Of a DNA stretch of 64,000 nucleotides, positions 5,193 through 49,288 are shown one piece after another (position 1 is the first letter of the stretch; each line of letters starts with the position of its first letter). The notes under the pieces were generated by a model. It saw nothing but the letters and a program-made list of their open reading frames with translations, was not told where the DNA came from and searched no databases. The translations under genes and the position numbers were made by a program. The DNA comes from a virus: positions 1 through 64,000 of the IMG/VR virus record IMGVR_UViG_3300020190_000033; one strand, given 5' to 3'.

Positions 5193-5238
5193 TATCTCTC
5201 ACTCGCCATACAATAATTGTATAACCCGAATGGGATAC
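5193..5238 (-). promoter_or_regulatory. GTATCCCA...GTGAGAGATA element upstream of the Mrr gene
   Basis: On the minus strand GTATCCCA (5238-5231) is followed by an AT-rich -10-like segment, and GTGAGAGATA (5202-5193) begins 36 bases after the G. It lies 72 bases before the ATG at 5158. Spacing and sequence match the copies at 44866 and 46034. It is probably a phage promoter with the start site near GTGAGAG; that is inference. Confidence 0.55.
5208..5222. promoter_or_regulatory. 15-base palindrome, possible operator
   Basis: ATACAAT-A-ATTGTAT is a perfect inverted repeat with one central base. It covers the AT-rich -10-like part of the Mrr promoter element, a position suited to repressor binding. 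No matching copy was seen at the other five elements. Confidence 0.4.
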
Positions 5239-5289
5239 TAAATATAAGTGTTTTACTAGGGAAGTGTTCCCCCGTTGGGGATCGCTCTT

Positions 5290-6156
5290 TCAGTATCCGA
5301 AATCGGTGGGGTTTTGGGCGATGACCTTTTCGATCACTTCGATGTGTTTCTTTAGGTGTATGGTGGTGATGCCTTTAGCCTCAGCCCACTCTTGGTGGGT
5401 TTGATAGGTGCCTTCGACCTTATCACGATATATTCCATATCGGATAAGACCTGTCTCCTGACCGAACTTGGAGGTGAGGAGGTGTTTGACATGATTTGAG
5501 ATGGAATCAGCTTCAGCTAGCTTTTCAGCTTCGGAGGTGTAGTCGTAAAAGTAGTCTACTTCGGTGTTTTCGGGGTTATCCTCGTCCACCTTTGTCACCA
5601 CTTTAGCGGAGTCTTCGGACTGATAGTGATACCGAGAACCACGCTTACACTCTTGTTGAGTCTTACGCCCGCGTTGGCGTTGCAGGGCATCTTGTCCCTC
5701 GACCATACTTGCCCGCCACACGAACTGCTTAAAATGGTAGAAGATTGAGTTTTGTGTGGGTTCTTTGCCTTTATCCACCATAGCGGAAAGATTGTTCTTG
5801 TCGCAGATGAAGACGATAAAATCTTGAAAATAATCTTCCAAGTCGCCTAGAGCAAAGTTTATAGCTGTGTCCCTGCCCCCATGACGGAGGCAAAACTCTC
5901 TCAGCTTTTCGTAGTTGGCGGACTTTCCGTCATACAGCCACTTCTCTGTGGAGTTGTAAGTCCTCCTTGAGGGGCGGTTTTTAGGCGGTTGGATCGTGAC
6001 AACCTGATACGACTCAATCTCGTTGAACATGGTGTCGAAAATCGAGTCTTTATTTTCAAGGGCTTTGATCTGAGCCTCTAGAGCTTTGATCTGAGCCTCC
6101 ACCTTCGCCGCTTCCTCCCGCTTCCCAAAAAGGTCTTGCCGCAGTTTCTCTAACAC
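5290..6156 (-). CDS. divergent sigma-70-like factor
   Basis: A 288-aa protein with a GTG start; AGGAGA lies eight bases upstream. An N-terminal heptad helix (residues 1-40, repeated AQIKALE) suggests a coiled coil. The central part, LEDYFQDFIVFICDKNN... then SIFYHFKQFVWRA, resembles the helix pair and FxxYxxxxxRN-like part of sigma region 2. Near the C-terminus, QEWAEAKGITTIHLKKHIEVIEK has a region-4-like helix-turn-helix layout. Canonical consensus residues are weak, so this is a remote call. It carries its own GTATCCCA element, which would allow feedback or class-specific transcription. Confidence 0.5.
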   Translation of the reverse strand: MLEKLRQDLFGKREEAAKVEAQIKALEAQIKALENKDSIFDTMFNEIESYQVVTIQPPKNRPSRRTYNSTEKWLYDGKSANYEKLREFCLRHGGRDTAINFALGDLEDYFQDFIVFICDKNNLSAMVDKGKEPTQNSIFYHFKQFVWRASMVEGQDALQRQRGRKTQQECKRGSRYHYQSEDSAKVVTKVDEDNPENTEVDYFYDYTSEAEKLAEADSISNHVKHLLTSKFGQETGLIRYGIYRDKVEGTYQTHQEWAEAKGITTIHLKKHIEVIEKVIAQNPTDFGY

Positions 6157-6244
6157 GATGGTCTCCTCATAGAGAGGGTTAGTTGTGCCTCATATGGTTG
6201 GTCACCGAGACACGGGGGGTAGCACCTAGTCTACACAGGGTAGG

Positions 6245-6289
6245 TGGTGTCAGTCAACACTAATCATGTTAGTTGGGGGTGTGGGATAC
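6245..6289 (-). promoter_or_regulatory. GTATCCCA element upstream of the sigma-like gene
   Basis: GTATCCCA (6289-6282, minus strand) follows a run of A and is trailed by ATGATTAGT at the -10-like position. It lies 125 bases from the GTG start, longer than the 55-72 bases of the other five copies. The GTGAGAGATA box is not conserved here, so confidence is lower. Confidence 0.4.
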
Positions 6290-6341
6290 TTTTTTTCTGT
6301 TTATTGACAACCTGCTAAGAATCTTCTGAAAGGATAAGATA

Positions 6342-7934
6342 ATGGACAAGAAACTACTGACCTTAGGTGTTCTGATCGAGCGGAGTGGGTTTGCCTCCCA
6401 CAACAAGGAAGCGGCTGAATTTTTGTCCGCTTTAAAGAAACAGGCAGGAATGGATAAACTCGCCATGTTGCCGACCAAATGGGATAGTCCAGCTAAGAAA
6501 CAAGAATATGGGGAAATGCCCCTAGATACCCTTCAGCACTTTTTTGTTCAGATGTGGTGGGGTGCGATGGTGAAGCTAGGTACGACCACCGTACAGCCTC
6601 CCGCTGAACTCAAGATGACCAACATGAAGTTTATAGATCGTTTCTTGGGTGCTCCACTTAAGGCATCTTCCAATCCTAAGCCGAATACGGAGATTAATCA
6701 GCTTTGGGCTTCTCTTAAGGAGGCATGGAACAGACACCGCACCGACTACGAGTCGGCTTGGAACCGCATTTGGTTTAGGGCATATAACGCTACAAGCTAT
6801 GTCCGTGGTACTAGGAGTTACCCAACCACAGAGGCACGCAATCAAGCTGAATCTGAGCAGTCCGTTGCGGTCTTTGATAAGTATTTTAAGGGTAACTCGT
6901 TATTTAACTTTGTTTTGAAATTAAATCTCGGCTCACTAGAGTCGGTCTTTGAGCAGACCTCGGCTCTGATTGTATCTAACATCGCCAATGGGAATGTATC
7001 CTCAAAGTCGGTCAAAAGCATCTCCACAGACTTTTCCGCTCCCGAAGATGAAGATGGTGGTGGTGCGGGTGATGCTTACAACTTCACCTATGAAGATGCC
7101 GTCATTAACTATCCGAGTAAACCGAGAGCAGTCACAGAAAAGCTGTTAGGAGATGATGGTACATGGCAAGCCTTCATCAATGAAGCCGTGAAGAATGATG
7201 CTTCTTTTATGGCGGATTTAAATGGGGTAATTAAGGATGCGTTAGAGATACCTGCTATGTCTGAGGATGTGTTGTTATCCACAAGGATAACAAGTTTGCC
7301 TCAGATGGAAATACTCGCAACCCTTATTGATGATTGCATCTCTCCTTTAGCGACAAGGCGTATTCAAAATACGGATAGGAACGCGATATCCAGCGGAGGT
7401 TATGCTGTCCTTTACGCATATCTAGCCTTGTCGGGGGTGACTTTTGAAGTGGCCGGAGGGGGTACAACGACTGTGAAGCTGTCGGTTAACCCTTTCTTAC
7501 TTAACTTCAGAGAGTTGCAGAGAGTCGCTCCTGAATTTAGAAAGGCGGCAGACTTTGGGGGATTGGTGGCTAGTCTTTGGGCTTCCGTAGAGAGGTATAT
7601 GCCCACAAAGTTACTCGTCATGAATCAAGCTGTGTTCACGACTCAGATGATCAAGTTTGTTTGGGGTGGGAGTGGTATAGCTCCTTATCAGTCCGAGAAG
7701 TTCCCTGAGGGTCCCATGAAGGCAGGTAGAAGATATTTTGCAGCCTGCCTCAAAGAGTTTATCCGTCTTCGCCTTATCCTTGAAGTTTCAAACCGCCAAG
7801 TTTTGGCAGATGCCGAACCGGGTTTAAAGGGTTCTACCTGTGTGGATGCTCTTAGAGCAATCACTATGGCACCTAAGTCGGTTATTGATGTTGCTCGTAC
7901 ACTTCTGATTCAGGACTTAGTGGGAATGAAGTAA
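6342..7934 (+). CDS. hypothetical protein, first gene of the tail block
   Basis: A 530-aa soluble, mostly helical protein with no recognised domain. An acidic glycine-rich linker (EDEDGGGAGD near residue 240) divides it into two parts. The N-terminal part is rich in Trp and aromatic residues (QMWWGAMV, WNRIWFRAYN). AAAGGATAAG precedes the ATG. It opens the plus-strand baseplate and fibre cluster and is separated by a structured leader from the W-like gene. A tail or head assembly role is suggested by position only. Confidence 0.8.
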   Translation: MDKKLLTLGVLIERSGFASHNKEAAEFLSALKKQAGMDKLAMLPTKWDSPAKKQEYGEMPLDTLQHFFVQMWWGAMVKLGTTTVQPPAELKMTNMKFIDRFLGAPLKASSNPKPNTEINQLWASLKEAWNRHRTDYESAWNRIWFRAYNATSYVRGTRSYPTTEARNQAESEQSVAVFDKYFKGNSLFNFVLKLNLGSLESVFEQTSALIVSNIANGNVSSKSVKSISTDFSAPEDEDGGGAGDAYNFTYEDAVINYPSKPRAVTEKLLGDDGTWQAFINEAVKNDASFMADLNGVIKDALEIPAMSEDVLLSTRITSLPQMEILATLIDDCISPLATRRIQNTDRNAISSGGYAVLYAYLALSGVTFEVAGGGTTTVKLSVNPFLLNFRELQRVAPEFRKAADFGGLVASLWASVERYMPTKLLVMNQAVFTTQMIKFVWGGSGIAPYQSEKFPEGPMKAGRRYFAACLKEFIRLRLILEVSNRQVLADAEPGLKGSTCVDALRAITMAPKSVIDVARTLLIQDLVGMK

Positions 7935-7943
7935 ATCTTTTAT
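7933..7943 (+). promoter_or_regulatory. AGTTTnTTTAT-like element before the baseplate genes
   Basis: Reads AAATCTTTTAT, 64 bases before the ATG at 8008 and directly upstream of the nested hairpin leader. It is a looser match to the element found before other virion genes. Confidence 0.35.
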
Positions 7944-7949
7944 TGATGC

Positions 7950-8000
7950 CCCCATGTAACTATCCGTTTTGTGTGGATAGTTAACCACTTCTTCATGGGG
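7950..8000 (+). promoter_or_regulatory. nested hairpin leader with buried ribosome site
   Basis: An inner perfect 9-bp stem TAACTATCC/GGATAGTTA (7957-7965 with 7975-7983) has a 9-base loop. An outer perfect 7-bp stem CCCCATG/CATGGGG (7950-7956 with 7994-8000) encloses it. The Shine-Dalgarno GGGGTGA begins inside the outer 3' arm, so folding would limit translation of the gene at 8008. Confidence 0.6.
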
Positions 8001-8007
8001 TGACAAT

Positions 8008-9048
8008 ATGAGTAAAGACTTGCAGATAGCTCACGCTTGCCCTCATCTTATCCGTTATGAGCGGGTGTTTTTAGATGGGGGCAAGTTTATTTCACCTGCG
8101 AGTCCAATCGAAGGTGAAAATCTTTTGGTCTTGAGGAGAGACGGAATAGAACTGCCCTCGGTGGGCTTGTTCAGAGAGGCTTCAGTAATATCTCCTCTTA
8201 AAGGTCCATATCGGATAAAGGCGGGGGCGAATGAGTTGGTGGTGGAGTTAGAGGGTGGAGTTTCTTATGATTTGATCATTCCACCTAAAATTTACAGCAC
8301 AGCTACGCTTGTTTCTTTTTTAGAGAACAAGTTGGGCGAGATTTCTGTGATGGAACATCAGTTAGCATTAAAGTTTACGGATAACCGCAGGGGAGTAGGG
8401 TTTAGCGTAAGGGGTTCAGTAATGGATAGTTTGGGTTTTTCGGTTTCAAAGGTGAGAGCGAAGCCACAAAGGATAACGCCGAGTTGGAAGTTGAGGAAAA
8501 GCGGAGTGGGGGGGTATATGTTGGCGTTTGATAAACCTCTAGACCCTGAGGGGTTATTGGATATCACCTACACAACCATCAAGTCTCAATGTCGTAGGTG
8601 CAATGCAACAGGGGTAGAGAATGACCTTAGATTTTCTACCACGGGTGATTTATCCATAGTGGAGGGATATGACCTATTGTATCAGAACATAGCGAAGACG
8701 CTATTGACAATACAGGGTAGCAATCCATATCACGATTGGTATGGGTCTAATGCGGTTGGTCTAGTGGGTAAGAAGTCTAGTACTGCCCTTCCGTCTTTGA
8801 TAAGGCAAAGTGTCAAAGAAGCATTGGATAGATTTCAAGGGTTACAGAGAGAGCAATCCAAGCTACAGGTGGTGACGAATGAAGAACGCTTGTTGAGTTT
8901 GGATAGCGTCTCTGTGGAACGGATAGGGAACGATGAGACGAGTGTATTGTGTACTGTGGTGGTGAGAGCGGCTAGTGGCTCTCCCGTGAACATAAACATT
9001 GTATTTGCCGTTCCTGGCAGTATCCCGCTAGATGGAGACCTATCATGA
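8008..9048 (+). CDS. baseplate wedge-like protein (W/gp25 position)
   Basis: A 346-aa protein. The last ~130 residues (NPYHDWYGSNAVG, then a helix, then VSVERIG and a beta-strand CTVVVRAASGSPVNI) have the length and pattern of gp25/W baseplate wedge proteins. The first 200 residues are beta-rich, with one CRRC pair. The main support is order: in P2-like phages W is followed by J, I and fibre genes, and here it is followed by a J-like gene (ATGA overlap) and a giant I/fibre gene. The wedge assignment is therefore partly inferred from synteny. Expression is probably controlled by the nested hairpin leader. Confidence 0.6.
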   Translation: MSKDLQIAHACPHLIRYERVFLDGGKFISPASPIEGENLLVLRRDGIELPSVGLFREASVISPLKGPYRIKAGANELVVELEGGVSYDLIIPPKIYSTATLVSFLENKLGEISVMEHQLALKFTDNRRGVGFSVRGSVMDSLGFSVSKVRAKPQRITPSWKLRKSGVGGYMLAFDKPLDPEGLLDITYTTIKSQCRRCNATGVENDLRFSTTGDLSIVEGYDLLYQNIAKTLLTIQGSNPYHDWYGSNAVGLVGKKSSTALPSLIRQSVKEALDRFQGLQREQSKLQVVTNEERLLSLDSVSVERIGNDETSVLCTVVVRAASGSPVNINIVFAVPGSIPLDGDLS

Positions 9049-24382: not shown

Positions 24383-24386
24383 GATC

Positions 24387-37304: not shown

Positions 37305-37356
37305 CACCACCTCTTAATGTGTGGGGTTGGGTCGATGCCGATTATACGAAGTTTAA

Positions 37357-39084: not shown

Positions 39085-39625
39085 GTGTTTCTCTTATCCA
39101 ATTCATATAGGTATCAAGGCTTAGGGTAAAGTTTTTATACAGGGAGGGAGCCAAGTTATCGCTAAACCATGTGGTTTTGTAGTACGCAGATGTGGCGGGC
39201 TTAGAGAACAGGATAAGCTGTATACAACCCGTGGTGTCTTTAGGTATCCTGAACCCCGTGAAAGATTTGCCATCCGTGTAGGTGGGGACGAAAACATTAT
39301 TCATATCGCTACACCACTCCACCTTTATGGTAAAGTCAGAGGAGTGTTCAGCCGCCATAGTGTAGACTATGGTGGTGTTGCTTTTGTTCTTATGCAAGGA
39401 TACATCATAGAAGCCCATTTCAGTCAACCACACAAGTAGTATCTTGTGGAGCGTATTGGGCGTGATCTGATTATTTTCATCACAAAAGTAATAAAGGTGA
39501 TCGTAATTTACATCCATCGCCTTTTTCTTCCCATCTACCTTGATCAGGACAGAGGGTAGAAACATCTCGATGTTAGTGGAGTGTCCCCCTGTACTCATAT
39601 CGACAAGTGACATTGAATATATCAT
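39074..39625 (-). CDS. hypothetical protein
   Basis: A 183-aa protein starting right after the stop of the upstream minus-strand gene, with AAGGAAA as ribosome site. Alternating beta segments (TTIVYTMAAE, FTIKVEWCS, CIQLILFSKP) and aromatic residues suggest a compact beta-rich fold. It converges with the HExxH gene, overlapping it by 11 bases. No family is recognised. Confidence 0.72.
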   Translation of the reverse strand: MIYSMSLVDMSTGGHSTNIEMFLPSVLIKVDGKKKAMDVNYDHLYYFCDENNQITPNTLHKILLVWLTEMGFYDVSLHKNKSNTTIVYTMAAEHSSDFTIKVEWCSDMNNVFVPTYTDGKSFTGFRIPKDTTGCIQLILFSKPATSAYYKTTWFSDNLAPSLYKNFTLSLDTYMNWIRETLKS

Positions 39626-39916
39626 TTAGTTTTCCTTGACCTTGCCCTTGCTGTTAATCGAGAGCGTACACCCCTTATTATCGGTAAAGATGGTCATCCG
39701 CCCCTCTTTTTTCCACACAACTCTTAGAGTATCCGTTCCCACATTGAAGGTGACGGAACCCTCCGTATTCGGGTTGATTGACCATGACATAGGGGCAATC
39801 TTAGAGGCATCACCAAGTACTAGGGCGGGCTTTGTGGTGATCACCACGACCTCCCCCGCTTTGACGAGGGCGAACCCACCACCCATGATCTTGCCGAATG
39901 TTTTGATCTCGTACAT
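39626..39916 (-). CDS. hypothetical beta-rich protein
   Basis: A 96-aa protein. The ATG at 39916 is chosen for its AGGAGA ribosome site; the upstream in-frame ATG lacks one. Beta-strand pattern throughout (FALVKAGEVVVITT, SVTFNVGTDTLRVVW, MTIFTDNKGCTLSI), like small capsid or tail decoration proteins, though nothing specific identifies it. It is coupled to the downstream gene, whose ATG follows the stop directly. Confidence 0.68.
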   Translation of the reverse strand: MYEIKTFGKIMGGGFALVKAGEVVVITTKPALVLGDASKIAPMSWSINPNTEGSVTFNVGTDTLRVVWKKEGRMTIFTDNKGCTLSINSKGKVKEN

Positions 39917-39960
39917 AGTATCTCCTATAGGGTCACACCACATCTAATAAGACAGAATGG

Positions 39961-39995
39961 GGGTTGGGACACAGAAAAGGATAGTATCCCAACCC
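39961..39995 (+). promoter_or_regulatory. 9-bp hairpin overlapping the GTATCCCA element
   Basis: GGGTTGGGA (39961-39969) pairs perfectly with TCCCAACCC (39987-39995). The right arm overlaps the promoter-like element, so it could also act as a bidirectional terminator between divergent genes; there is no T-run. Confidence 0.4.
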
Positions 39996-40026
39996 GAGCT
40001 ATCTATTATTAATGGGGTGTACCCCC
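39984..40026 (+). promoter_or_regulatory. GTATCCCA element upstream of the first transglycosylase
   Basis: GTATCCCA at 39984, TATTATTAA about 20 bases on, then a GGGGTGTACCCC palindrome at 40014-40025 where other copies have GTGAGAGATA. It lies 55 bases before the ATG at 40047. Its first 20 bases are almost identical to the copy at 46034. Confidence 0.55.
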
Positions 40027-40046
40027 TCTACGAAGAGAGAAGCATA

Positions 40047-40622
40047 ATGAGCAAGTTGGATATACTCAACATCATCATCAAGCTGTTGGTTTTGGATAAT
40101 GCTCAGGGTTTGGATAAACCCGCAGTTAAGGCACACCTCAATGAGGTAGCCTCGGCTATATACGCGGAGGGGGGAGTGAAGGCGGGTGTGCCTCATGAGA
40201 GGCTAATCAGCTTGGCGTATAATGAGAGTAGGTTTGGATACAAGTATGTGGGGACGGGAACCTACCCTAAGACCTCATGGGGGGCGTGTGGTGTGTATCA
40301 GCAAGTCCCCGCCTACTCCACCATCCCCACCACCTGCGACAAGTTGGGGAAAAATATCCGTCACGCCACAAAGGTGGCGGTTGGGTATCTGAAGTACATG
40401 AGGGCAAGGTGGAAGGTATCCAATACGGATAAGATGGATACCTTAATGTGTCACTACTACAGCGGCAACACTTGTGATGTGGAGGCGAAGGGTTATGCCT
40501 CACGGCACAAGAAGATTAGACTCAAGGCGATCAGTCTTGTGGGCAAGAAGAAGGTTGTTGTGGGGAAGAAGAAGGTTCTTGTAGCCTCACGGAAAAAGGG
40601 GCTCCCTCCTGCAACTATTTAG
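40047..40622 (+). CDS. soluble lytic transglycosylase (SLT) domain protein
   Basis: A 191-aa protein starting at ATG 40047; the longer reading frame has no ribosome site. LISLAYNESRFGYKYVG carries the catalytic-type glutamate (E60), and WGACGVYQQVP matches the SLT G-x-x-Q segment. These enzymes cleave the MurNAc-GlcNAc bond of peptidoglycan by an intramolecular transglycosylation. There is no signal peptide. The C-terminal tail is strongly basic with repeated GKKKV units encoded by a short DNA repeat. The role could be virion-borne cell-wall entry or lysis. It is controlled by a GTATCCCA element. Confidence 0.82.
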   Translation: MSKLDILNIIIKLLVLDNAQGLDKPAVKAHLNEVASAIYAEGGVKAGVPHERLISLAYNESRFGYKYVGTGTYPKTSWGACGVYQQVPAYSTIPTTCDKLGKNIRHATKVAVGYLKYMRARWKVSNTDKMDTLMCHYYSGNTCDVEAKGYASRHKKIRLKAISLVGKKKVVVGKKKVLVASRKKGLPPATI

Positions 40623-40670
40623 TATAATGCCTCGGGGTCGAAGGTGAAAGCTCTAAACAAAGGATAGGTG

Positions 40671-41276
40671 ATGCTAAGTTTTTTGTACTCTACAGTAAAC
40701 GCGGGAAAGACAGCTCATTTGATAATGAGAGCACACTCTTGTTCCGAAGCTGGCATTAACCACGAGGTTCTTGTCCCTGAAATAGCATCTAAGAGAGATG
40801 GCATATCTCGTGTTTCCTCTAGGATAGGGATACAGAGAGGAGCATCGTCTCTTAAAGGCGACACTTGTCCTTATGAGTATATTATCTCTTGTAACGAAAG
40901 AGCCTTGAGGGTTTGGGGCAAGCCTAATCCGATTAAGATAGTTTTTGTGGATGAGGCTCAATTCTTAACAAAGGCTCAGGTGGTGGGGCTAACGCGGATA
41001 GTGGATGAGCTAGCTGTTCCTGTTTTCGCCTATGGCTTAAGAACGGACTTCAAGGGAGAGTTATTTGAGGGCAGTTCTTATTTACTTGGTTGGGCGGATA
41101 AGGTGGAGGAGATATCCATATTTGGTAAGTCAGAATATGGGGGATTGGTGGAGCGAGCGACTTTCAACATGAAAGTCGATTTAGAGGGTAAGCAGGTAGT
41201 CAAGGGAGACTCGATTGATCCAGGGTTTGGATACCTTCCTGTATCCCGCAAGAGGTTTGGTTTAACGAAGTTTTAA
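40671..41276 (+). CDS. tdk: thymidine kinase, type II, lacking zinc cysteines
   Basis: A 201-aa protein; ATG 40671 with AAAGGA upstream. It phosphorylates thymidine to dTMP for phage DNA synthesis. The P-loop STVNAGKT is at residues 7-14, the VDEAQFLT Walker-B/DExQ segment is near 90, and YGLRTDFKGELFEGSSYLL matches the family closely. The lasso region, usually held by a Cys4 zinc site (ICFCG and CR..H/C), here reads ISIFGKSE and PVSRKRF, so all zinc cysteines are gone. Its stop overlaps the convergent sigma gene. The family call is strong; retained activity is uncertain. Confidence 0.88.
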   Translation: MLSFLYSTVNAGKTAHLIMRAHSCSEAGINHEVLVPEIASKRDGISRVSSRIGIQRGASSLKGDTCPYEYIISCNERALRVWGKPNPIKIVFVDEAQFLTKAQVVGLTRIVDELAVPVFAYGLRTDFKGELFEGSSYLLGWADKVEEISIFGKSEYGGLVERATFNMKVDLEGKQVVKGDSIDPGFGYLPVSRKRFGLTKF

Positions 41277-41899
41277 GCGTCTCTACGCTGTAAAAGAGAA
41301 GCGACCTGAGACCTTATCTCTTTGACGCAAAGATTGACCCTCTTCATTTCCCAGCCTAGTTCTTGGGCGATGTGTGCGTGTTTGGTGCCTTCCATCATGG
41401 CATCGAACACTTTGAGTAAGTCTCCTTGAAAAGATGACCTTACTTGTTCGATTAAGAAGTCATCTTCTTCGGTGGAGTAATGAGATGCGAGATTTGATGT
41501 AGCGGCATCATCTTCAGAACCAACACATTCGCGGTCATTGTGTAGTTTCCGCTTCTTGACAATGTTCATGACAACGCAGTTCATGACCATGACGACATAG
41601 GTAGAGAAGGCAGACTTCTTTGGGTCATAGGGACAAGTGCCTTCGTTACGGATAATCAGTCCTTTATAAACCTCTTGGAGGACATCTTCGGGGTCTAATC
41701 CGAGACGAGCGACTTGTTTTGCTTGGCGTTTGTAGAACAAGAGTCGGATGTCGGACGACTTTTTATTGATGTCGATTCCGTGGGGTTTCTTTTTGATTGG
41801 GTTGAACTTCTTTTTGAAGTCAAAGCTGAGTATCGCATAGACCCCCTGATGCCATTTTTTGTTTGGCTGCACTTGGGTATAGTCAACAAGGCACTCCAT
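41273..41899 (-). CDS. RNA polymerase sigma-70 family factor
   Basis: A 208-aa protein. Start chosen at ATG 41899, where GGAGAG is correctly spaced; ATG 41911 is possible. DPEDVLQEVYKGLI and AFSTYVVMVMNCVVMNIVKKRKL match sigma regions 2.1-2.4, in which the core-binding and -10-recognising helices lie. The C-terminal TKHAHIAQELGWEMKRVNLCVKEIRSQV is a region-4 helix-turn-helix. It lacks region 1 and is the size of ECF or phage sigma factors. It probably redirects host RNA polymerase to phage promoters; the recurrent upstream elements in this window are candidate targets. Confidence 0.82.
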   Translation of the reverse strand: MECLVDYTQVQPNKKWHQGVYAILSFDFKKKFNPIKKKPHGIDINKKSSDIRLLFYKRQAKQVARLGLDPEDVLQEVYKGLIIRNEGTCPYDPKKSAFSTYVVMVMNCVVMNIVKKRKLHNDRECVGSEDDAATSNLASHYSTEEDDFLIEQVRSSFQGDLLKVFDAMMEGTKHAHIAQELGWEMKRVNLCVKEIRSQVASLLQRRDA

Positions 41900-41964
41900 A
41901 TAACTCTCCATAAAGGTGGGTTCAAAGGAGTACCCGTTATTGCCTAATTAACCTAGGGTGTCAA

Positions 41965-43706: not shown

Positions 43707-43712
43707 CGCTAC

Positions 43713-44384
43713 ATGGACGATGGATGGCTTAAACAAGGTTTTGCAAGCCCCCTAGAGACATATCGACCATACCTCCTCTCTAGAGGTGTCAATAGCCAAT
43801 CCACTATCCATTTCCACTCTTGGAACCCCCATTCAAATGTCCAAGACCCCCGTTTTAAATCTATGTTTGGACAACAAGGGGAACGCATAAAAGAACACCT
43901 GATTATTCCGATCTCCTCCCCTAGAGGTCAAATCATCGGACTTGAAGCCCGCTCTCTTTCTGAAGATGGACAAAAGAAAGTCCTTCAGTATCGTACACCA
44001 CACTCTCAATGGAACCCTTACCTACTCGGCTCTCAAAATGCTTTTAAAGCCCTTTGGGAAGGACACGACCTTTGGATAGTCGAAGGTGTGTTTGATCTGA
44101 TCGCAGTTGAAAAATGCCTCTCTAATGGAGATGCCGTTTGTTCAACCCTCCGTGCAGGTATGGACGCAAATACTCTCGCATCCATCTCTCAGTTTTATAC
44201 TCCCATGTCCACCATCTATATCTGTTACGACAATGACGAAACAGGAAGAAAGAAATCTCTTTGGCTTCATAAGGAGATGTCCCGCCTCGGAATCCGTTGT
44301 GTAGAATGGAAGTACAGAGGAAAAGACCCCGGAGAAGTTTGGAAAGCTGGCGGTCTTCAGGGTCTAAAGAAAATGTTTTATTAA
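43713..44384 (+). CDS. DnaG-type primase fragment (TOPRIM core, no zinc domain)
   Basis: A 223-aa protein. The N-terminal part YLLSRGV...F and HLIIPISSPRGQIIGLEARSL match the RNA-polymerase-like core of DnaG. The TOPRIM fold follows with E124 in WIVEGVFDLIAVEK and D173/D175 in YDNDETGRK, the metal-binding acidic set. The CHC2 zinc-binding domain and the helicase-binding C-terminus are absent, so priming may need a partner. It begins six bases after the transglycosylase gene. A minimal phage primase is the best reading. Confidence 0.83.
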   Translation: MDDGWLKQGFASPLETYRPYLLSRGVNSQSTIHFHSWNPHSNVQDPRFKSMFGQQGERIKEHLIIPISSPRGQIIGLEARSLSEDGQKKVLQYRTPHSQWNPYLLGSQNAFKALWEGHDLWIVEGVFDLIAVEKCLSNGDAVCSTLRAGMDANTLASISQFYTPMSTIYICYDNDETGRKKSLWLHKEMSRLGIRCVEWKYRGKDPGEVWKAGGLQGLKKMFY

Positions 44385-44418
44385 TAGATCATCTATCATA
44401 TGCACCTAATCAAGACAA

Positions 44419-44428
44419 CCTGATCAGG
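44419..44428 (+). promoter_or_regulatory. palindrome covering a ribosome site
   Basis: CCTGATCAGG is a perfect 10-base palindrome whose right half forms part of the AGGAG ribosome site of the gene at 44439. Confidence 0.4.
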
Positions 44429-44438
44429 AGCATAAACC

Positions 44439-44864
44439 ATGAGAAGAACCGCTAGTGAAATCTTAAGTGACCTTGAAACCCGCATCGCACGCTTAGAGCG
44501 TCACGCTTCCAAGTCCCGTTTCGCTGACGATATGTGGGCGGATGACCTTGAGGCGGATGATATGTTCGCTGATGAGATGTTCGCAGGGCGTACTTGGGAC
44601 GGCAAGGGGAATCAGAAAGACTACAACAACCCACCCGCCCCAAAAAATCAAGCAGATTGTTACTCCGCAGACAATTGGGAAGGACTCGGTAAGCCCGGTC
44701 AGGGCGAAACCTGTTATCGTCTCCACAACAACTACGGCGAAGCCAACTCAGGTAAGCCGGGTTCAGCCGCTAGAAAAGAGTACAACAGGAGATACCGTGA
44801 GGAGTGGATGGACTCTGCCTCCATCAAGAGACCTGAGGGTAAGAGACCAGGCGGTCGTAGATAG
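44439..44864 (+). CDS. small protein with RTAS/ARLER N-terminal tag
   Basis: A 141-aa protein beginning MRRTASEILSDLETRIARLE, a sequence shared in pattern with the proteins at 47388 and 47907 (minus strand). It continues with an acidic repeat (ADDMWADDLEADDMFADEMFA) and a polar tail with two cysteines (DCYSADNW, ETCYRL). It has no signal peptide or membrane segment. The common N-terminus with different bodies suggests a shared localisation or processing signal, for example packaging into the virion, but that is inference. Confidence 0.78.
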   Translation: MRRTASEILSDLETRIARLERHASKSRFADDMWADDLEADDMFADEMFAGRTWDGKGNQKDYNNPPAPKNQADCYSADNWEGLGKPGQGETCYRLHNNYGEANSGKPGSAARKEYNRRYREEWMDSASIKRPEGKRPGGRR

Positions 44865-44865
44865 A

Positions 44866-44924
44866 GTATCCCAAGGGGGTTTCTCCGTTATTAGTTAGGT
44901 GTGAGAGATACACACCAACCCCCT
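44866..44924 (+). promoter_or_regulatory. GTATCCCA...GTGAGAGATA element with nested hairpins
   Basis: GTATCCCA at 44866, TTATTAG near +22, and GTGAGAGATA at 44901, exactly 35 bases from the first G. AGGGGGTT (44874-44881) pairs with AACCCCCT (44917-44924), enclosing GGTGTG-AGAGATA-CACACC (44898-44916). The start codon at 44937 is 63 bases after the element. Confidence 0.6.
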
Positions 44925-44936
44925 CAGGAGATGATC

Positions 44937-45164
44937 ATGCCCAAGCTCTTCATGACCCGCCACAAGCTCCACGGCACCCTCGACCTCACCGTCCACACCG
45001 CTCACCACATCAAGCTCCTCAGCATCCTCCCCCACGCCAAAGTCCTCGTCAAGACCCCGACCACCACGATGCTTACCTTGAAGTACGACTCCTTCAAGGG
45101 GAAGGATGGGTCGGAGGAGGTGGTGGGGGTGTTGCGTGGATACTACGAGATTGTGGAGGGGTGA
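44937..45164 (+). CDS. hypothetical small basic protein
   Basis: A 75-aa protein; the ATG at 44937 is correctly spaced from AGGAG (44926-44930), unlike ATG 44931. It is histidine-rich (RHKLHGTLDLTVHTAHHIK) with a beta-rich body. Codon use is unusual for this genome: long C-rich runs (CTCCACGGCACCCTCGACCTC-like segments) raise local GC well above neighbours. This suggests recent acquisition or special expression. Function unknown. Confidence 0.68.
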   Translation: MPKLFMTRHKLHGTLDLTVHTAHHIKLLSILPHAKVLVKTPTTTMLTLKYDSFKGKDGSEEVVGVLRGYYEIVEG

Positions 45165-45184
45165 CCCCCCCTTGGGGATGTTGA

Positions 45185-45550
45185 GTGATAAGGCTCGGTG
45201 ACTACATCCTTTATGGGAAACACTTAAAGCTACGCCAAGTCTTGTCTCTGAACACCTTACATGGATATGGGGTGAGTAATGGCGTATGTGTTCCCCTTAA
45301 AGATATCTACGCAGTAGTCCCAACCCTTTATCAGCCACAGACCTTGACTAATGTCAACATACTCGTAAACGGATACCTTCCAATATATCGGCATATATTA
45401 TTGTGCCTACCACCCTCTACAACGGGTGACCTAGTAAAGGTTTATATACCCCATGCAGGGGTATTAGAGGGTGTTGTTTCCCATTGGGAGGGAAGCTCAG
45501 TTTTTATATTTGAGCTAGTGTCACACGCCAAAATAGTTCTCGTAGCGTGA
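45185..45550 (+). CDS. hypothetical protein, tandem paralogue of the next gene
   Basis: A 121-aa protein with a GTG start; GGGGA upstream is the only ribosome site. The N-terminal region IRLGDYILYGKHLKLRQVL ... YAVVPTLY parallels NIGDFMVWGGNQLRFARIL ... FAILPTHY in the gene at 45581, so the two are diverged duplicates. Beta-rich, with no recognised family. Confidence 0.65.
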   Translation: MIRLGDYILYGKHLKLRQVLSLNTLHGYGVSNGVCVPLKDIYAVVPTLYQPQTLTNVNILVNGYLPIYRHILLCLPPSTTGDLVKVYIPHAGVLEGVVSHWEGSSVFIFELVSHAKIVLVA

Positions 45551-45580
45551 ATCTAGTGCAGCACAGAAAGGATAAAAGAG

Positions 45581-45997
45581 ATGGGTAATATTGGAGACTT
45601 TATGGTTTGGGGGGGAAATCAACTGAGGTTTGCCCGCATCCTCGAAAAACACTCACAGGGCTTGTTTTACGGATACTTGAGTGATAATGGCAAAATAAAG
45701 TATATAGCCGATCCTTTCGCTATCCTTCCCACGCACTATGCGGAAATATCCCCAACATCTTCGGATCGTATCATCGTTTGTGGGGATAAAAGTTTCATAT
45801 ACTTGAATTGGGAAGAAGCGAGTGTGAGTTTTTTCGGTAGCGGGGTATTCGAGATTTACTTTGAGGGCAAATTATATTTGGGGGTTGGCACAGCTTGCCC
45901 TCATGCCTTTCGAGGCGTAGAGGGGAGGAGGAGTTACTTCTTCTTTACTGAGATCAAAACTAATACTCTTTACGCTTTGCCCTCAAGCAAGACCTGA
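45581..45997 (+). CDS. hypothetical protein, tandem paralogue of the previous gene
   Basis: A 138-aa protein, AAAGGA upstream of ATG 45581. It shares the GDxxxxGxxLRxxxIL and P-T-x-Y landmarks with the gene at 45185. The C-terminal half (FEIYFEGKLYLGVG, SYFFFTEIK) is beta-rich. Function unknown; the duplication indicates a selected role, perhaps host interaction. Confidence 0.68.
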   Translation: MGNIGDFMVWGGNQLRFARILEKHSQGLFYGYLSDNGKIKYIADPFAILPTHYAEISPTSSDRIIVCGDKSFIYLNWEEASVSFFGSGVFEIYFEGKLYLGVGTACPHAFRGVEGRRSYFFFTEIKTNTLYALPSSKT

Positions 45998-46033
45998 TAA
46001 TCCGTAAATGATCCTCGCTTAGGTCTTATAAGG

Positions 46034-46083
46034 GTATCCCAACCCGAACTATCCTATATTAGTGGGGTGTGAGAGATAGACCC
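46034..46083 (+). promoter_or_regulatory. GTATCCCA...GTGAGAGATA element upstream of the ligase
   Basis: GTATCCCA at 46034, TATATTAG near +21 and GTGAGAGATA at 46069 (35 bases on). A GGGGT/ACCCC stem brackets the second box. The ligase ATG at 46105 is 63 bases after the element. Confidence 0.6.
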
Positions 46084-46104
46084 CCCTTAACTAAGGAAAT
46101 TGAG

Positions 46105-46302
46105 ATGAAGTACCACAAGCCTCAGCTTGCCAAGACTGCTGACGAGAAGTTCTTATCCGCCTGTAAGGGTAGCCACCTTGTGGTGGCAGAGATGAAACTC
46201 GATGGGCATCGCATCATGATTGCCCATGATCAGGCATGGTCTCGTATAGGTAAGGAGATCAAGTCGGTGGGGCATATTCAGCTCACTTGCCCGCTGGCTT
46301 AA
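46105..46302 (+). CDS. ATP-dependent DNA ligase, N-terminal part (frameshifted)
   Basis: Sixty-five residues from ATG 46105 (AAGGAA upstream). VVAEMKLDGHR contains motif I with the AMP-accepting lysine K31, and the R-I-G-K segment follows as in the family. The reading frame then leaves the homologous path and stops at 46302. The rest of the enzyme continues in the -1 frame from 46254. One extra G in the run 46269-46272 would fuse both parts into a 299-aa ligase reading SVGAYSAHLPAG. It may be a sequencing error, a true mutation or programmed shifting. Confidence 0.8.
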   Translation: MKYHKPQLAKTADEKFLSACKGSHLVVAEMKLDGHRIMIAHDQAWSRIGKEIKSVGHIQLTCPLA

Positions 46303-47003
46303 TGCTTGACGGGGAGTTGATCCCTCGGGCAGGGGTGGAGGGTTCCGATGTCGTTTCTCATCTCAGAGCGAATGACCCTGAGGCACTTGAGTTTGTTATC
46401 TTTGATGTCCTCTATGTAGAGGGACAAAGCGTGATGAACCTGCCTTGGTTGGAGAGGCGTAAGATCATTGAGAACCTACCCTCTTTCACCAACACTCGAC
46501 TTTCTGTTTTGTATCCTCTGTCTCAGTACACGATTGAGGATTTGATGGCGTTAGCGGCAGATCGAGGGCATGAGGGCATCATGCTCAAAAAGGTTACGGA
46601 ACCCTACAAGGAGAATAGCCGCTCGGCTTGGGTGAAGCACAAGTTTACGGATACTCATGATGTGGTCATTGTGGACGCTAATGCCAAGCCCTCAGAATGG
46701 CGTGTCCGTCCAGGAGAGATGGGTACAGATGGTATCTTGTACCCTCAAGGTCGTCACTCAGACCCTTGGCTTGCAGGTCATGTCGGACTGAGTTATGGAT
46801 ATTATGACCAACAGGGGGTTCTTCGTGTGGTTGGTTCCCTTGGGGAAACGGGAACGCCTGAAGATATGTCCGCCCATGTTGGAAAAGTTGCAGAGGTTAA
46901 GGGTTATGGATTGTATCCCACAGGGGCTATTCGACACCCTGTGTTCCTCCGCTGGCGTGACGACAAGCTACCTACCGATTGTGTGTTTAACTTCGCCAAC
47001 TAA
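46287..47003 (+). CDS. ATP-dependent DNA ligase, catalytic and OB part (frameshifted)
   Basis: The downstream part of the split ligase, drawn from TTG 46287 (open from 46254); ATG 46302 is another internal start. It contains motif III MLDGELI, IIIa EFVIFDVLY, motif IV HEGIMLKKV and motif V AWVKHKFTDTHDVVIV, followed by an OB-fold domain. Without the lysine of the upstream part it cannot form the enzyme-AMP intermediate, so activity needs fusion or reassembly. ATP-dependent ligases seal nicks during phage replication and recombination. The intact reconstructed length, about 299 aa, suits minimal phage ligases. Confidence 0.82.
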   Translation: MPAGLMLDGELIPRAGVEGSDVVSHLRANDPEALEFVIFDVLYVEGQSVMNLPWLERRKIIENLPSFTNTRLSVLYPLSQYTIEDLMALAADRGHEGIMLKKVTEPYKENSRSAWVKHKFTDTHDVVIVDANAKPSEWRVRPGEMGTDGILYPQGRHSDPWLAGHVGLSYGYYDQQGVLRVVGSLGETGTPEDMSAHVGKVAEVKGYGLYPTGAIRHPVFLRWRDDKLPTDCVFNFAN

Positions 47004-47006
47004 CTC

Positions 47007-47388
47007 TTAGTCGCCGTAAACATCCAACTCACTTAAATTGCCCATGCGAGGTCTGCCCCTATAGTTAGGGTTCGCATAATGTAAGGGGTCTCCTGTAATA
47101 TCCTGAACCACCGCAGTCATCTCCTCCGCTGTCCTAGCCCTTGTATTAAAGGCTTCTTGGAAATTAGCAATGAATTCCTTCTCAGAACAGCGGAATACCA
47201 TATCTCCGTCTCTGTCGAAGTCGTACTGCAAGAAGGTGGCACCATCGAAGTAGTCGTGATATAATCCTACTATATCACCGTAGTACTTACCCGCCGCTGT
47301 CCTCGAAGTGGAACCCGCACGCCTTTCAAGGCGTGCGGGTTCTCATCTCAAGGCTTCTTAAAACTTCACTAGCGGTTCTTCTTATCAT
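47007..47388 (-). pseudogene. RTAS/ARLER-tagged protein, frameshifted in a perfect hairpin
   Basis: Reading from ATG 47388 (GGAGA seven bases upstream) gives MIRRTASEVLRSLEMRTRTP and a stop. Shifting by one base at the CCC near 47337-47339 restores ARLERRAGSTSRTAAG, then KYYGDIVGLYHDYFDGATFL and an acidic body to the stop at 47007. Deleting one C yields a continuous tag MIRRTAS...SLEMRTARLERRA, matching the proteins at 44439 and 47907. The insertion lies in a 15-bp perfect inverted repeat. Either a real +1 mutation or an assembly artefact. The body (74 residues from a TTG at 47231) has no other credible start. Confidence 0.7.
47311..47342. repeat. 15-bp perfect inverted repeat with 2-base loop
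   Basis: GAACCCGCACGCCTT (47311-47325) and its exact reverse complement (47328-47342) flank TC. It is GC-rich in AT-rich surroundings and lies inside a coding region at the site of a frameshift. There is no T-run, so it is not a typical terminator. Confidence 0.85.
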
Positions 47389-47460
47389 TATCAAATCTCC
47401 AAGGGGGTAATGGATAGGGGTTAATAGATAACTTGTAGGGGTCTCTAGATGACGGATATG

Positions 47461-47907
47461 TTAATCCACTCTGCGACCTTTGATGTCTTTCACAGCAGAG
47501 GCAATACCGATAGAAACTTCTGTTCTGAAATCAGTAGGCACCCCGCCCGATGGGGTGATAACGCAGTCAATCTCTAGCTTCAAGAGACCACCTGAACGAA
47601 ATTCACCACTTCCCGAAAACGAATTCCAAGTACCCACCTGAATACTCTTGAACTCAATATCCGCATCGTGATCAAGGTCTACTCTACTCTCCTTCTCAAA
47701 CTGAGATTGAACTGCCCGCACTACTGCATTATTTACCCCATCCCCAAAGAATTTAAAAGCGTCGAATTTCATTAGGGATTTCTGTACGACAGGTTCTATA
47801 CCCTCACCCATCTGAACATAGAACATACCATTACTTGCGGTACGACCTTCGAGGCGAGCAACGCGAGCCTGTAGATGACGGATAACATCAGCAGCACTTC
47901 TTCTCAT
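47461..47907 (-). CDS. small protein with RTAS/ARLER-like N-terminal tag
   Basis: A 148-aa protein beginning MRRSAADVIRHLQARVARLE, the same tag pattern as at 44439 and 47388. The body is an alpha-beta domain (KFDAFKFFGDGVNNAVVRAVQSQF helix; VDLDHDADIEFKSIQ, LLKLEIDCVI and RTEVSIGIASAV strands), possibly a small nucleic-acid or structural fold. Its leader forms a nested hairpin with the TTGGAG ribosome site in the outer arm. It is immediately upstream of, and co-oriented with, the frameshifted tagged gene. Confidence 0.76.
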   Translation of the reverse strand: MRRSAADVIRHLQARVARLEGRTASNGMFYVQMGEGIEPVVQKSLMKFDAFKFFGDGVNNAVVRAVQSQFEKESRVDLDHDADIEFKSIQVGTWNSFSGSGEFRSGGLLKLEIDCVITPSGGVPTDFRTEVSIGIASAVKDIKGRRVD

Positions 47908-47915
47908 GATTGAAA

Positions 47916-47960
47916 CTCCAAGGGATTAATGGATAGGGATTTATCCACTCACGCTTGGAG
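47916..47960 (-). promoter_or_regulatory. nested hairpin leader of the tagged gene at 47907
   Basis: Outer perfect 7-bp arms CTCCAAG (47916-47922) and CTTGGAG (47954-47960) enclose a perfect 6-bp stem TGGATA/TATCCA (47930-47935 with 47942-47947). On the minus strand the outer 3' arm contains the Shine-Dalgarno of the gene starting at 47907. Confidence 0.58.
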
Positions 47961-48010
47961 AGAATATAGATAAACTATAAAAGCCTTAAATCTCTAAAGG
48001 AGTGTGACAT

Positions 48011-49192
48011 ATGTTCTTTGAGTACGACAAGAAGCCGCTGATGAGCTTAGACGAATGTGAAATAAAGGTGGGAGACAGGGTTCAAATTCCACCTAGCTTG
48101 TGGGTCGAGATTAGGGAATCGTTTACGCAGGAGGCTATTACTGCACATTTGGGAAATGTGATCAAAAGATTGCCCTTTCCAATTAGGGAGTACACGCAAC
48201 AAGAAATACAAGATGACTTGAACGCATTGAGAGCGGAATCCTTGAAATATGAAGTATCTCCTTGGAGCACCCCACGGATAAACACACCAATGAACTTGGT
48301 TTATGGTTCTAAGCCTATCTGCCTGATAGGAAACAATAGTGGGCTAAAAGTATCCAATATCCAAACTCAGGCTATCCGTATGGAGTGTGGGTTAAAGAAG
48401 CAGGGTGCTCCGATGGAAGAATGGAGGAACGCCCATGCGAAAAAGAGCAACTTCTTTAGATGTCTGTTTGGGATACTTTCAGAGGAAGTGTCAACTAAGG
48501 GGATAGAGAACTCGATTTTGTATCGAGCGTTAAAGATGCACACCTATATGGCGAGTCAGTTTAAGCCTAGCGTAGCGAAATCTATTTATGACCTGTTTGG
48601 TGCGAAGAGGGTCTTAGATTTCTCAGCAGGTTGGGGGGATAGATTGGTTGGGTTCTTGGCTAGTGGGGCGGAGAGTTATGTAGGGATTGATCCGAATACC
48701 AAACTGCATGAGCCATATAGACGGATATCGGATAGTGTAGGTGGAACTAAGGCAACGGAGTTTATTTGTTCTCCAGCTGAAGAAGTGAACTATGGGGGCA
48801 TTTCGTATGATTTTGTGTTTACAAGCCCGCCATATTTCGACACCGAGAGATACTCGGAAGAACCTACACAAAGTTGGATAAGACACTCCACATTGGATAA
48901 ATGGTTGAATGGGTTTTTATTTGAGGTATTGGGCAGGGTCTATGGTGGTCTTGAGGATGGAGGCAGGTTAGCTGTGAATATATCGGATAAGAAAGGCGAG
49001 GGAAATATCTGCCAACCGATGTTGGAGTTTATGGATAAACTAGGTGCGACTTATGAGGGCGTGATTGGATATAAAATGCACAAGAGGAACGGGATAGGTC
49101 TTGAGGGGAATTTCTGCGAGCCTGTTTTTGTTTGGAGCAAGGGGGGAGCCCCTGAGCCGAAATGGATAACCGATAACTTCTTTGGTGTATAG
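48011..49192 (+). CDS. SAM-dependent DNA methyltransferase (N6-adenine/N4-cytosine type)
   Basis: A 393-aa protein. VLDFSAGWGDRLVGFLA (near 201-217) is the SAM-binding motif I, YVGIDPNT (near 223-230) the acidic loop, and VFTSPPYFD (near 269-277) the catalytic (D/N/S)PPY motif of amino-methyltransferases. The first 190 residues form a separate helical domain, perhaps for DNA recognition. AAAGGAG precedes the ATG. It may methylate phage DNA against host restriction. It belongs to a different class from the D12 enzyme at the left edge. The target site is unknown. Confidence 0.84.
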   Translation: MFFEYDKKPLMSLDECEIKVGDRVQIPPSLWVEIRESFTQEAITAHLGNVIKRLPFPIREYTQQEIQDDLNALRAESLKYEVSPWSTPRINTPMNLVYGSKPICLIGNNSGLKVSNIQTQAIRMECGLKKQGAPMEEWRNAHAKKSNFFRCLFGILSEEVSTKGIENSILYRALKMHTYMASQFKPSVAKSIYDLFGAKRVLDFSAGWGDRLVGFLASGAESYVGIDPNTKLHEPYRRISDSVGGTKATEFICSPAEEVNYGGISYDFVFTSPPYFDTERYSEEPTQSWIRHSTLDKWLNGFLFEVLGRVYGGLEDGGRLAVNISDKKGEGNICQPMLEFMDKLGATYEGVIGYKMHKRNGIGLEGNFCEPVFVWSKGGAPEPKWITDNFFGV

Positions 49193-49236
49193 TCTAGGTG
49201 GGCAAACTGAAACCTCTTTGATGTGGGGTCAAGAAG

Positions 49237-49288
49237 GTATCCCAAGGGGGTGTTCTCCGTATATGTGTGGTGTGGCTACCACACATAT
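49237..49288 (+). promoter_or_regulatory. GTATCCCA element with 10-bp hairpin
   Basis: GTATCCCA at 49237, TATATG near +23, then a perfect 10-bp stem ATATGTGTGG/CCACACATAT (49261-49270 with 49279-49288) in place of GTGAGAGATA. GGAGAAG follows and the ATG is at 49301. Confidence 0.55.

What the first reader, a model, noticed from the sequence alone, without database searches (positions are those of the whole stretch)
5193..49288. Recurring GTATCCCA promoter-like element with fixed 35-base spacing to GTGAGAGATA
GTATCCCA occurs upstream of six genes on both strands: Mrr (5238-), sigma-like (6289-), transglycosylase (39984+), small gene (44866+), ligase (46034+) and small gene (49237+). In three copies GTGAGAGATA starts exactly 35 or 36 bases later; in two others a hairpin sits at that place. 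An AT-rich TATTA-like segment lies about 20 bases after the G. The distance to the start codon is 55-72 bases except for the sigma-like gene. It looks like a phage promoter class with a conserved transcript start, and the phage encodes two sigma-like proteins.
Basis: partly seen in the sequence, partly recalled or inferred. Interest (0 to 1): 0.75.

Follow-up and report, generated by a model that had tools for sequence, protein, structure and literature searches.

The report
Jumbo-phage promoter class with sigma gene
The repeated GTATCCCA element looks like a real on-switch shared by dozens of genes in a group of uncultured giant phages, probably read by the host's RNA polymerase fitted with a phage-made sigma factor.

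Summary
GTATCCCA occurs 10 times in the window (2.1 expected). Seven copies sit before genes; an eighth site is a GTGTCCCA variant. The element is bipartite: (G/T)TATCCCA, 15 bases, [T/C]ATTA. The window is part of an incomplete jumbo-phage genome. A matrix from 12 of its sites finds 24 in a 290-kb relative (~75% DNA identity); permuted matrices average 1.3. After retraining, 29 of 32 sites lie outside called genes and 30 of 32 lie 58-115 bases before a start codon. All 7 class-A genes of the relative with a window-phage orthologue have a site there too.

GTGAGAGATA marks only 5 of 18 sites. Leader hairpins are not a class feature.

Protein 41273-41911 is a two-domain sigma by profile and fold; 5290-6156 is unproven. 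Five phages, chosen for carrying the first, all carry the second. Both genes tend to have strong host-sigma70-type promoters (families ranked 1 and 3 of 104). PF00562 found no multisubunit RNA polymerase in six records.

Best model: host sigma70 makes the phage sigma, which redirects host polymerase to GTATCCCA promoters, mostly before small accessory genes. A second class (TAATAG..TTTATA) may serve late genes. Transcript starts and the sigma-promoter pairing are inferred.

The parts
5193..5238 (-). class-A promoter of the Mrr-type endonuclease gene (4379-5158); GTATCCCA, TTATTG, then GTGAGAGATA 36 b after the G
6245..6289 (-). degenerate class-A-like copy before gene 5290-6156 (ATTAG shifted by one base)
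6228..6257 (-). sigma70-like promoter TTGACT-N18-TAGACT before gene 5290-6156; best-scoring of 244 window-phage genes
5290..6156 (-). P0002: conserved protein with homologues in all five jumbo phages compared; proposed sigma-like, not proven
39927..39972 (-). class-A promoter variant GTGTCCCA..TTATTAG, divergent from 39984, 56 b before ATG of 39626-39916
39984..40025 (+). class-A promoter of the transglycosylase-like gene (ATG at 40047); orthologous site in G008 at 272063
41273..41911 (-). P0001: two-domain (sigma2+sigma4) phage sigma factor by profile and fold; best candidate reader of class A
41936..41964 (-). candidate sigma70-like promoter TTGACA-N17-AATAAC before P0001 (only rank 43 of 244); by eye a TTGACT-N17-AATAAC also precedes the G008 orthologue
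44866..44910 (+). class-A promoter, GTGAGAGATA 35 b after the G, ATG at 44937
46034..46078 (+). class-A promoter of the DNA-ligase region (ATG at 46105); a leader hairpin also lies at the orthologous G008 site 216899
49237..49290 (+). class-A promoter with a strong leader hairpin before gene 49301-49504; orthologous site in G008 at 278530

Best explanation
The element is a bipartite promoter, class A: -35-like (G/T)TATCCCAA, a spacer of about 14 bases, then -10-like TTATTAGT, with the start expected about 6-8 bases later in the conserved G-rich stretch (GGTGTG in this phage, GGGG in the relative). The phage appears to use the host core RNA polymerase. Host primary sigma reads a few TTGACA/TATAAT-type promoters, among them those of the phage sigma P0001 (41273-41911) and of P0002 (5290-6156). 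P0001 then carries the host core enzyme to the class-A promoters, which mostly drive small accessory genes. A second promoter class, TAATAG-N4-TTTATA, drives others, including tagged and structural-like genes. Shown: the element, its spacing, its placement, its conservation, that P0001 is a sigma by profile and fold, and that sigma70-type promoters rank high before the two genes. Inferred: start site, timing, use of host polymerase, and which protein reads which class.
For: A matrix from 12 window-phage sites (one of them from G009, whose membership is inferred) gives 24 hits above 8 bits in G008; 50 column-permuted matrices give mean 1.28, max 5; 10 Markov genomes give 1-4. Of 32 retrained sites 29 lie outside called genes (non-coding fraction 8.4%) and 30 lie 58-115 b before a start. 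Class A is conserved between orthologues: by script 6 genes in each phage, 4 shared, among 162 pairs, Fisher 8e-6, no A/B switch. By hand, all 7 G008 class-A genes with an orthologue have a site in the window phage. P0001: the five-member profile hits sigma-H 3mzy at 1.8e-6 over residues 69-209; the G011 homologue hits a phage sigma PHROG at 1.8e-6; 47 of the 50 Foldseek rows shown are sigma-factor entries; region 4 on 3mzy Z 9.0 over 69 residues at 2.5 A. Sigma70 promoters: P0001 gene rank 1 of 646 (LR745208) and 1 of 320 (G011); P0002 gene 1 of 244 (window phage), 4 of 320, 6 of 646. Among 104 conserved families P0002 ranks 1 and P0001 ranks 3. No PF00562 RNA polymerase in six records.
Against: P0001's own promoter scores only 43 of 244 in the window phage, 31 of 317 in G008 and 147 of 282 in G012. 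Nothing links P0001 rather than P0002, or a host sigma, to class A. Distant homologue carriers use other motifs (LR745208: zero class-A matches). The five phages were found through P0001, so its presence in all five is by selection. Both AlphaFold models are poor (pLDDT 52.9 and 48.7); no Foldseek hit reaches 0.001, and the aligner warns that Z under about 13 is common for helical models. PF00562 was not shown to detect diverged phage polymerases, the window phage is incomplete, and the single-subunit RNAP search had no ringing control.
Confidence: 0.62

Rival explanations
1. Class A is read by the host RNA polymerase with one of the host's own sigma factors (an alternative or diverged primary sigma), and P0001 serves class B or something else.
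For: No host is known, so its promoter code is unknown. P0001 could equally be the class-B factor: both classes coexist in the window phage and G008.
Against: The phage also carries TTGACA-type promoters ahead of the sigma pair, so the host primary sigma seems to read a different sequence. The class looks lineage-bound: a strict pattern scan of the viral contigs gave more than one hit per record only in G008 and in 3300008459_000021, which looks like a near copy of part of G008 by equal site spacing. The window phage's near copies gave one hit each with that strict pattern.
Confidence: 0.2
2. P0002, not P0001, is the class-A factor, and P0001 reads the TTTATA class.
For: P0002 has homologues in all five phages, its central segment is nearly identical between the two class-A phages, and its gene has the best sigma70-type promoter in the window phage.
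Against: No good sequence or fold evidence that P0002 is a sigma, whereas P0001 has it.
Confidence: 0.15
3. The element is an RNA leader motif (hairpin with a GTGAGAGATA loop) rather than a promoter.
For: A strong hairpin at 49237 (z -3.2) and hairpins in the ligase leader of both phages. Leaders fold slightly better than their shuffles on average (mean z -0.70 over 18 and -0.62 over 32 sites).
Against: Only 5 of 18 and 6 of 32 leaders have z below -1.5. Pooled cross-site arm tests are not significant (45 to 261 of 500 shuffles reach the observed value). No Rfam match at gathering level in the window. The most conserved columns are upstream of the expected leader.
Confidence: 0.03

Closest known systems
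Jumbo phages without their own RNA polymerase that encode sigma factors (group 2 of the comparative survey PMC7824862; review PMC13282480; passages read)
   Same: No multisubunit RNAP found by PF00562, a phage-encoded sigma, expected use of the host core enzyme at phage-specific promoters
   Different: In the passages I read such promoters are inferred in general terms; here a concrete consensus, its spacing and its gene set are derived. Whether this lineage belongs to group 2 was not tested
T4 gp55/gp33 late-promoter system (recalled)
   Same: A phage sigma reprograms the host core enzyme; the second class here (TTTATA) resembles a -10-only late promoter
   Different: Class A is bipartite with a strong -35-like block; P0001 appears to carry both region 2 and region 4
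SPO1 sigma cascade gp28 and gp33/34 (recalled)
   Same: Early host-sigma promoters, then phage sigma(s) with their own bipartite middle/late promoters
   Different: Different consensus and other phages; timing not measured here
ECF sigma factors (SigH, RpoE)
   Same: Two-domain sigma2-sigma4 layout; class A blocks start about 22 b apart
   Different: Phage-encoded, TATCCCAA instead of a GGAAC-type -35 (recalled); phylogenetic membership not tested
AR9 and phiKZ jumbo-phage promoters (PMC9209446, PMC5312081 seen as search listings only)
   Same: Jumbo phages with promoter classes of their own
   Different: Those use phage multisubunit polymerases; none found here

Membership tests
Bacterial-type sigma factor (P0001) | sigma region 2 | tested here: met
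   Pfam Sigma70_r2 below its cut-off for the window protein (17.4 of 24 bits) and for G011 and G012 homologues, no hit for LR745208's; five-member profile to sigma-H 3mzy at 1.8e-6 over 69-209
Bacterial-type sigma factor (P0001) | sigma region 4 (-35 reader) | tested here: met
   The profile match to 3mzy runs through residue 209; model residues 133-211 on 3mzy, Z 9.0, rmsd 2.5 over 69, with the aligner's caution on helical folds
Bacterial-type sigma factor (P0001) | binds core RNA polymerase and directs initiation | not testable with these tools
   needs biochemistry
Bacterial-type sigma factor (P0002) | sigma regions 2 and 4 | tested here: inconclusive
   weak Foldseek sigma hits at E above 1 with pLDDT 48.7; hhalign to P0001 colinear but Prob 2.6; no Pfam sigma hit
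Phage-specific promoter class | recurrent upstream of genes above chance, fixed internal spacing, conserved between relatives | tested here: met
Phage-specific promoter class | transcripts start at a fixed distance | not testable with these tools
   no RNA data
RNAP-encoding jumbo phage | multisubunit RNAP genes | tested here: inconclusive
   PF00562 gives no match in G000, G001, G002, G004 and G008, G009, cellular controls ringing 14 of 14; diverged phage polymerases were not used as control, the window phage is incomplete, and G011, G012 and LR745208 were not searched
T7-type single-subunit RNAP user | PF00940 polymerase gene | tested here: inconclusive
   no match in four records but no control genome rang; G008 and G009 not searched
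RNA leader or riboswitch family | match to a described Rfam family | tested here: not met
   0 matches at gathering level in the window
RNA leader or riboswitch family | class-wide conserved leader structure | tested here: inconclusive
   mild mean excess of folding, no significant pooled arm covariation

The most novel reading that the evidence does not exclude
A widespread lineage of uncultured jumbo phages runs a conserved two-sigma cascade: host sigma70 switches on a pair of phage factors (P0001 and P0002), each of which owns one promoter class, and the promoter code is rewritten from phage to phage while the pair of regulators is kept.
Probability: 0.35. Interest if true: 0.65.

Novelty: new variant of a known kind. 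Interest (0 to 1): 0.52.

Why it matters
Transcription programmes of jumbo phages that lack their own polymerase are, in the papers I saw, mostly inferred from gene content. Here the promoter code of an uncultured lineage can be read from sequence: two promoter classes, a sigma with a companion protein, and sigma70-type promoters before that pair. It gives a testable sigma-promoter partner, marks which genes are likely switched on together, and offers an orthogonal bipartite promoter. The element also flags members of the lineage in metagenomes.

Tried and rejected
Hairpin or loop as the class feature: folding and 15 cross-site arm-shuffle tests gave no class-wide support. The lowest were G008 arms flanking the -10 (20 of 500 shuffles), window-phage leader (31 of 500) and window-phage spacer against leader (33 of 500); the five pooled tests gave 45 to 261 of 500. 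I first read compensating stems by eye in several leaders; the tests did not bear this out as a class.

Rfam: 0 at gathering in the window. One sub-threshold hit in 44850-49320, RF02503 at 47312-47396(-), 24.2 of 40 bits, taken as chance.

Named phages: no megablast match for window 1-25000 and 40000-64000. tblastn with two helicase-like proteins reaches LR745208 best and Tunturiibacter phage Tunturi_5 weakly; P0001 reaches LR745208 only. No homologue of P0001 was confirmed in the genome-contig scan (38 candidate stretches, 0 confirmed).

A matrix for the TTTATA class degenerated on iteration to about 500 hits and was dropped; class B rests on k-mers and aligned hits.

Of 20 stretches in the first viral scan and 40 in the second, those outside the window phage's near copies and the 3300020578_000074 / 3300021424_002684 records looked by eye like chance matches in coding sequence and were not used. 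Of the further loci of the third scan (72 stretches) I looked at six and used none; the remaining ones outside G008 and its near copy were not looked at.

The list of 18 window-phage sites leaves out one weaker hit, G009 40319(+), CTATCCCA. The G001a 41558(-) site has ATATAAAT in place of TATTA, and its G008 counterpart scores only 7 bits. The ligase counterpart at 46034 stands before the separate N-terminal frame 46105-46302, and at 39984 my caller set the gene start too far upstream (39957), so the script missed both.

AlphaFold models had pLDDT 52.9 (P0001) and 48.7 (P0002) from two-sequence alignments. The gene calls are from a simple script of mine, with some wrong starts. The sigma70 matrix is recalled textbook frequencies. 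That G009 (61 kb) belongs to the window phage is inferred from complementary synteny to G008, shared dispersed repeats and the same GTATCCCA form. The print-out was cut, so its comparison for G010 was not seen and G010 was not used. P0002 is not among the families of the 64- and 59-family controls, because its LR745208 and G012 homologues were found by profile or phmmer and not by reciprocal BLAST.
Full report
WHAT THE WINDOW IS. The window is bases 1-64000 of an 82,226-b IMG/VR virus record. Its bases 1-25000 and 40000-64000 have no megablast match in 50,697 named phage records. A 110-kb record (G001) is 99.9% identical over 52 kb and extends the genome leftwards; a 17-kb record (G004) extends it further. 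G008, a 290,179-b contig, is a relative at about 71-86% DNA identity over matched blocks, many of them colinear. So the window is a piece of a jumbo-phage genome; its Pfam hits include a thymidine kinase, a DnaB helicase, topoisomerase I and a weak sheath-initiator match.

THE OBSERVATION. GTATCCCA occurs 10 times in the window against 2.14 expected, with 0 of 100 shuffles reaching 10. Seven exact copies have a TATTA-like block near the right distance (5238-, 6289- degenerate, 39984, 44866, 46034, 49237, 60227-), and 39972(-) is a GTGTCCCA variant; the other exact copies lie in called genes without it. GTGAGAGATA follows at 35-36 b in three, as stated. Over all window-phage pieces, 5 of 6 exact GTGAGAGATA lie there, but that is 5 of the 18 sites listed, so it is a frequent initial sequence rather than a defining part.

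IS IT MORE THAN CHANCE. A matrix built from 12 sites (11 from G000, G001 and G004, one from G009) was run on G008. It gave 24 hits above 8 bits; 50 column-permuted matrices gave mean 1.28 and at most 5; ten Markov-1 genomes gave 1 to 4; the reversed matrix gave 1. The fixed pattern TATCCCAA-N13,14-[TC]ATTA occurs 28 times in G008 and 0 times read backwards. After retraining on G008 there are 32 sites, 29 outside called genes although only 8.4% of G008 is non-coding; 30 of 32 are 58-115 b before a called start, the exceptions being 224552(-) and 167701(-). The gap between TATCCCA and [TC]ATTA is 15 b in 28 G008 cases and 13 window-phage cases. Consensus: G008 TTATCCCAA-N13-TTATTAGTGGGG; window phage GTATCCCAA-N13-TTATTAGTnnGGTGTG.

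CONSERVATION BETWEEN ORTHOLOGUES. Among 162 reciprocal-best-hit pairs, the script scored class A in 6 G008 genes and 6 window-phage genes, 4 shared (Fisher 8e-6), with no pair switching between class A and class B. By the simpler pattern 7 of 31 G008 class-A genes have an orthologue, and by hand all 7 have a site in the window phage: 39984 and 49237 (G000), 46034 before the split ligase frame, 906 and 41558- (G001), 1057 (in my G004 piece) and 13011 (G009). The 41558- site has a weaker -10. In the other direction, window-phage site 48965(-) has no G008 counterpart. Class-A genes are small (median 120 aa against 179.5 for all genes) and poorly conserved: 7 of 31 have a window-phage orthologue against 162 of 317 genes; in G011 6 of 31 against 18 of 34 class-B genes, Fisher 0.009. 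Ten of the 31 were scanned against Pfam, with no hit at 0.01. This fits early or accessory takeover genes, but timing is inference.

A SECOND CLASS. Upstream regions are also enriched in TTTATA, preceded by TAATAG-like bases. In G008 it lies before a 2658-aa protein with a structural-protein PHROG hit, a 1123-aa helicase and a clamp loader. Of 11 G008 proteins with an N-terminal tag of the type MRTASEVLRSLEARIARLEGR, found by a loose pattern, 9 appear in the TTTATA list. I read it as a late class, not shown; helicase and clamp loader do not speak for late.

WHICH POLYMERASE. PF00562 gives no match in six records while all 14 cellular controls ring; diverged phage polymerases were not used as control. 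A T7-type polymerase was not seen in four records, but no control rang. The window phage is incomplete, so absence is provisional.

THE SIGMA. The protein at 41273-41911 (P0001) scores below Pfam's cut-off for Sigma70_r2 (17.4 of 24 bits). Homologues occur in G008, G011, G012 and LR745208; these phages were found by searching for it. A profile of the five hits PDB 3mzy, a sigma-H, at 1.8e-6 over residues 69-209; the single sequence and the two-member profile had no such hit. The G011 homologue hits PHROG 1740, RNA polymerase sigma factor, at 1.8e-6. Of the 50 Foldseek rows shown, 47 are sigma-factor entries, many of them ECF, best E 0.015, none at 0.001. Region 4 aligns with Z 9.0, rmsd 2.5 over 69 residues; the tool cautions that such Z is common for helical models, and the model's mean pLDDT is only 52.9. 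P0002 (5290-6156) has homologues in the same five phages, that of LR745208 found only by profile. Evidence that it is a sigma is weak: Foldseek E above 1, hhalign Prob 2.6 to P0001, no PDB or Pfam sigma hit.

THE CASCADE. Sigma70-type promoters (recalled E. coli matrix) were scored before every called gene. The P0001 gene ranks 1 of 646 in LR745208 (TTGACA-N16-TATATT), 1 of 320 in G011, 31 of 317 in G008, 43 of 244 in the window phage and 147 of 282 in G012. The P0002 gene ranks 1 of 244 (window phage), 4 of 320 (G011), 6 of 646 (LR745208), 9 of 282 (G012) and 21 of 317 (G008). Fisher over the ten gives 2.4e-8, though orthologues are not independent. As a control I ranked conserved families: of 104 with orthologues in window phage, G008 and G011, P0002 is first and P0001 third; of 64 including LR745208, and of 59 in all five, P0001 is first (P0002 is not in these two sets). 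So host sigma70 is likely to switch on the pair, which then reads the phage classes. The pairing P0001 to class A is the most likely one because P0001 is the better supported two-domain sigma and class A is the bipartite class; it is inference.

TURNOVER OF THE CODE. LR745208 has no class A (0 pattern matches) but 45 upstream copies of CCGATAG, most of them in the frame GATTTCnCTAAAAA-N14-CGTGCCGATAGGG. G011 has ATATAAG and TTTTATA motifs (15 upstream hits each), and G012 a GGCGTAA motif (31 hits) that I could not place. The regulators are kept while the promoter code seems to change.

LITERATURE. The review PMC13282480 (passages read) says that jumbo phages without RNAP often encode sigma homologues that likely act with host RNAP at phage promoters. 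PMC7824862 (passages) describes group-2 jumbo phages with sigma factors. PMC12619734 (passages) reports a sigma-factor orthologous group in another aquatic lineage. PMC7162821 (passages) mentions phage sigma70. Six searches listed no paper that, from its listing, describes this consensus; the library lacks most subscription journals.

VERDICT. A very likely genuine promoter class in an uncultured jumbo-phage lineage with a plausible sigma partner; a known kind of system with a new code and a conserved regulatory layout.

Noticed in passing
window 44439-44864, 47461-47907, 64031-64468; by a loose pattern 16 proteins in the window-phage pieces, 11 in G008, 15 in G011: Many otherwise different small proteins share an N-terminal tag of the type M(I)RRTASEVLRSLEARIARLEGRT (a related one in G011); 0 in G012 and LR745208 by the same pattern. 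It may be a virion-targeting or prohead-protease tag; in G008 9 of 11 lie in the TTTATA promoter list.
   Followed up: partly
window 63038-63139, 63904-64005, 63963-64101, 47341-47417, 47837-47968: Dispersed repeats of about 60-150 b at 77-98% identity, some next to a TTTATA promoter and the start of a tagged gene, also in G001 and G009.
   Followed up: no
window 46105-47003: The DNA-ligase gene is split over two overlapping frames (46105-46302 and 46287-47003), while the G008 orthologue is one frame (215939-216832).
   Followed up: no
LR745208.1, whole record: A 485-kb uncultured huge phage with 45 upstream CCGATAG copies, most in a bipartite frame GATTTCnCTAAAAA-N14-CGTGCCGATAGGG; zero annotated features in the public record.
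   Followed up: partly
G012 (IMGVR_UViG_3300032243_000867): GGCGTAA occurs in 31 upstream regions, in 19 of them ending about 7-12 b before the called start codon. It could be a translation signal or belong to very short leaders.
   Followed up: no
window 4379-5158(-): A Mrr-type restriction endonuclease with a HARE-HTH domain sits under a class-A promoter, so it may act early, e.g. on host DNA or rival phages.
   Followed up: no
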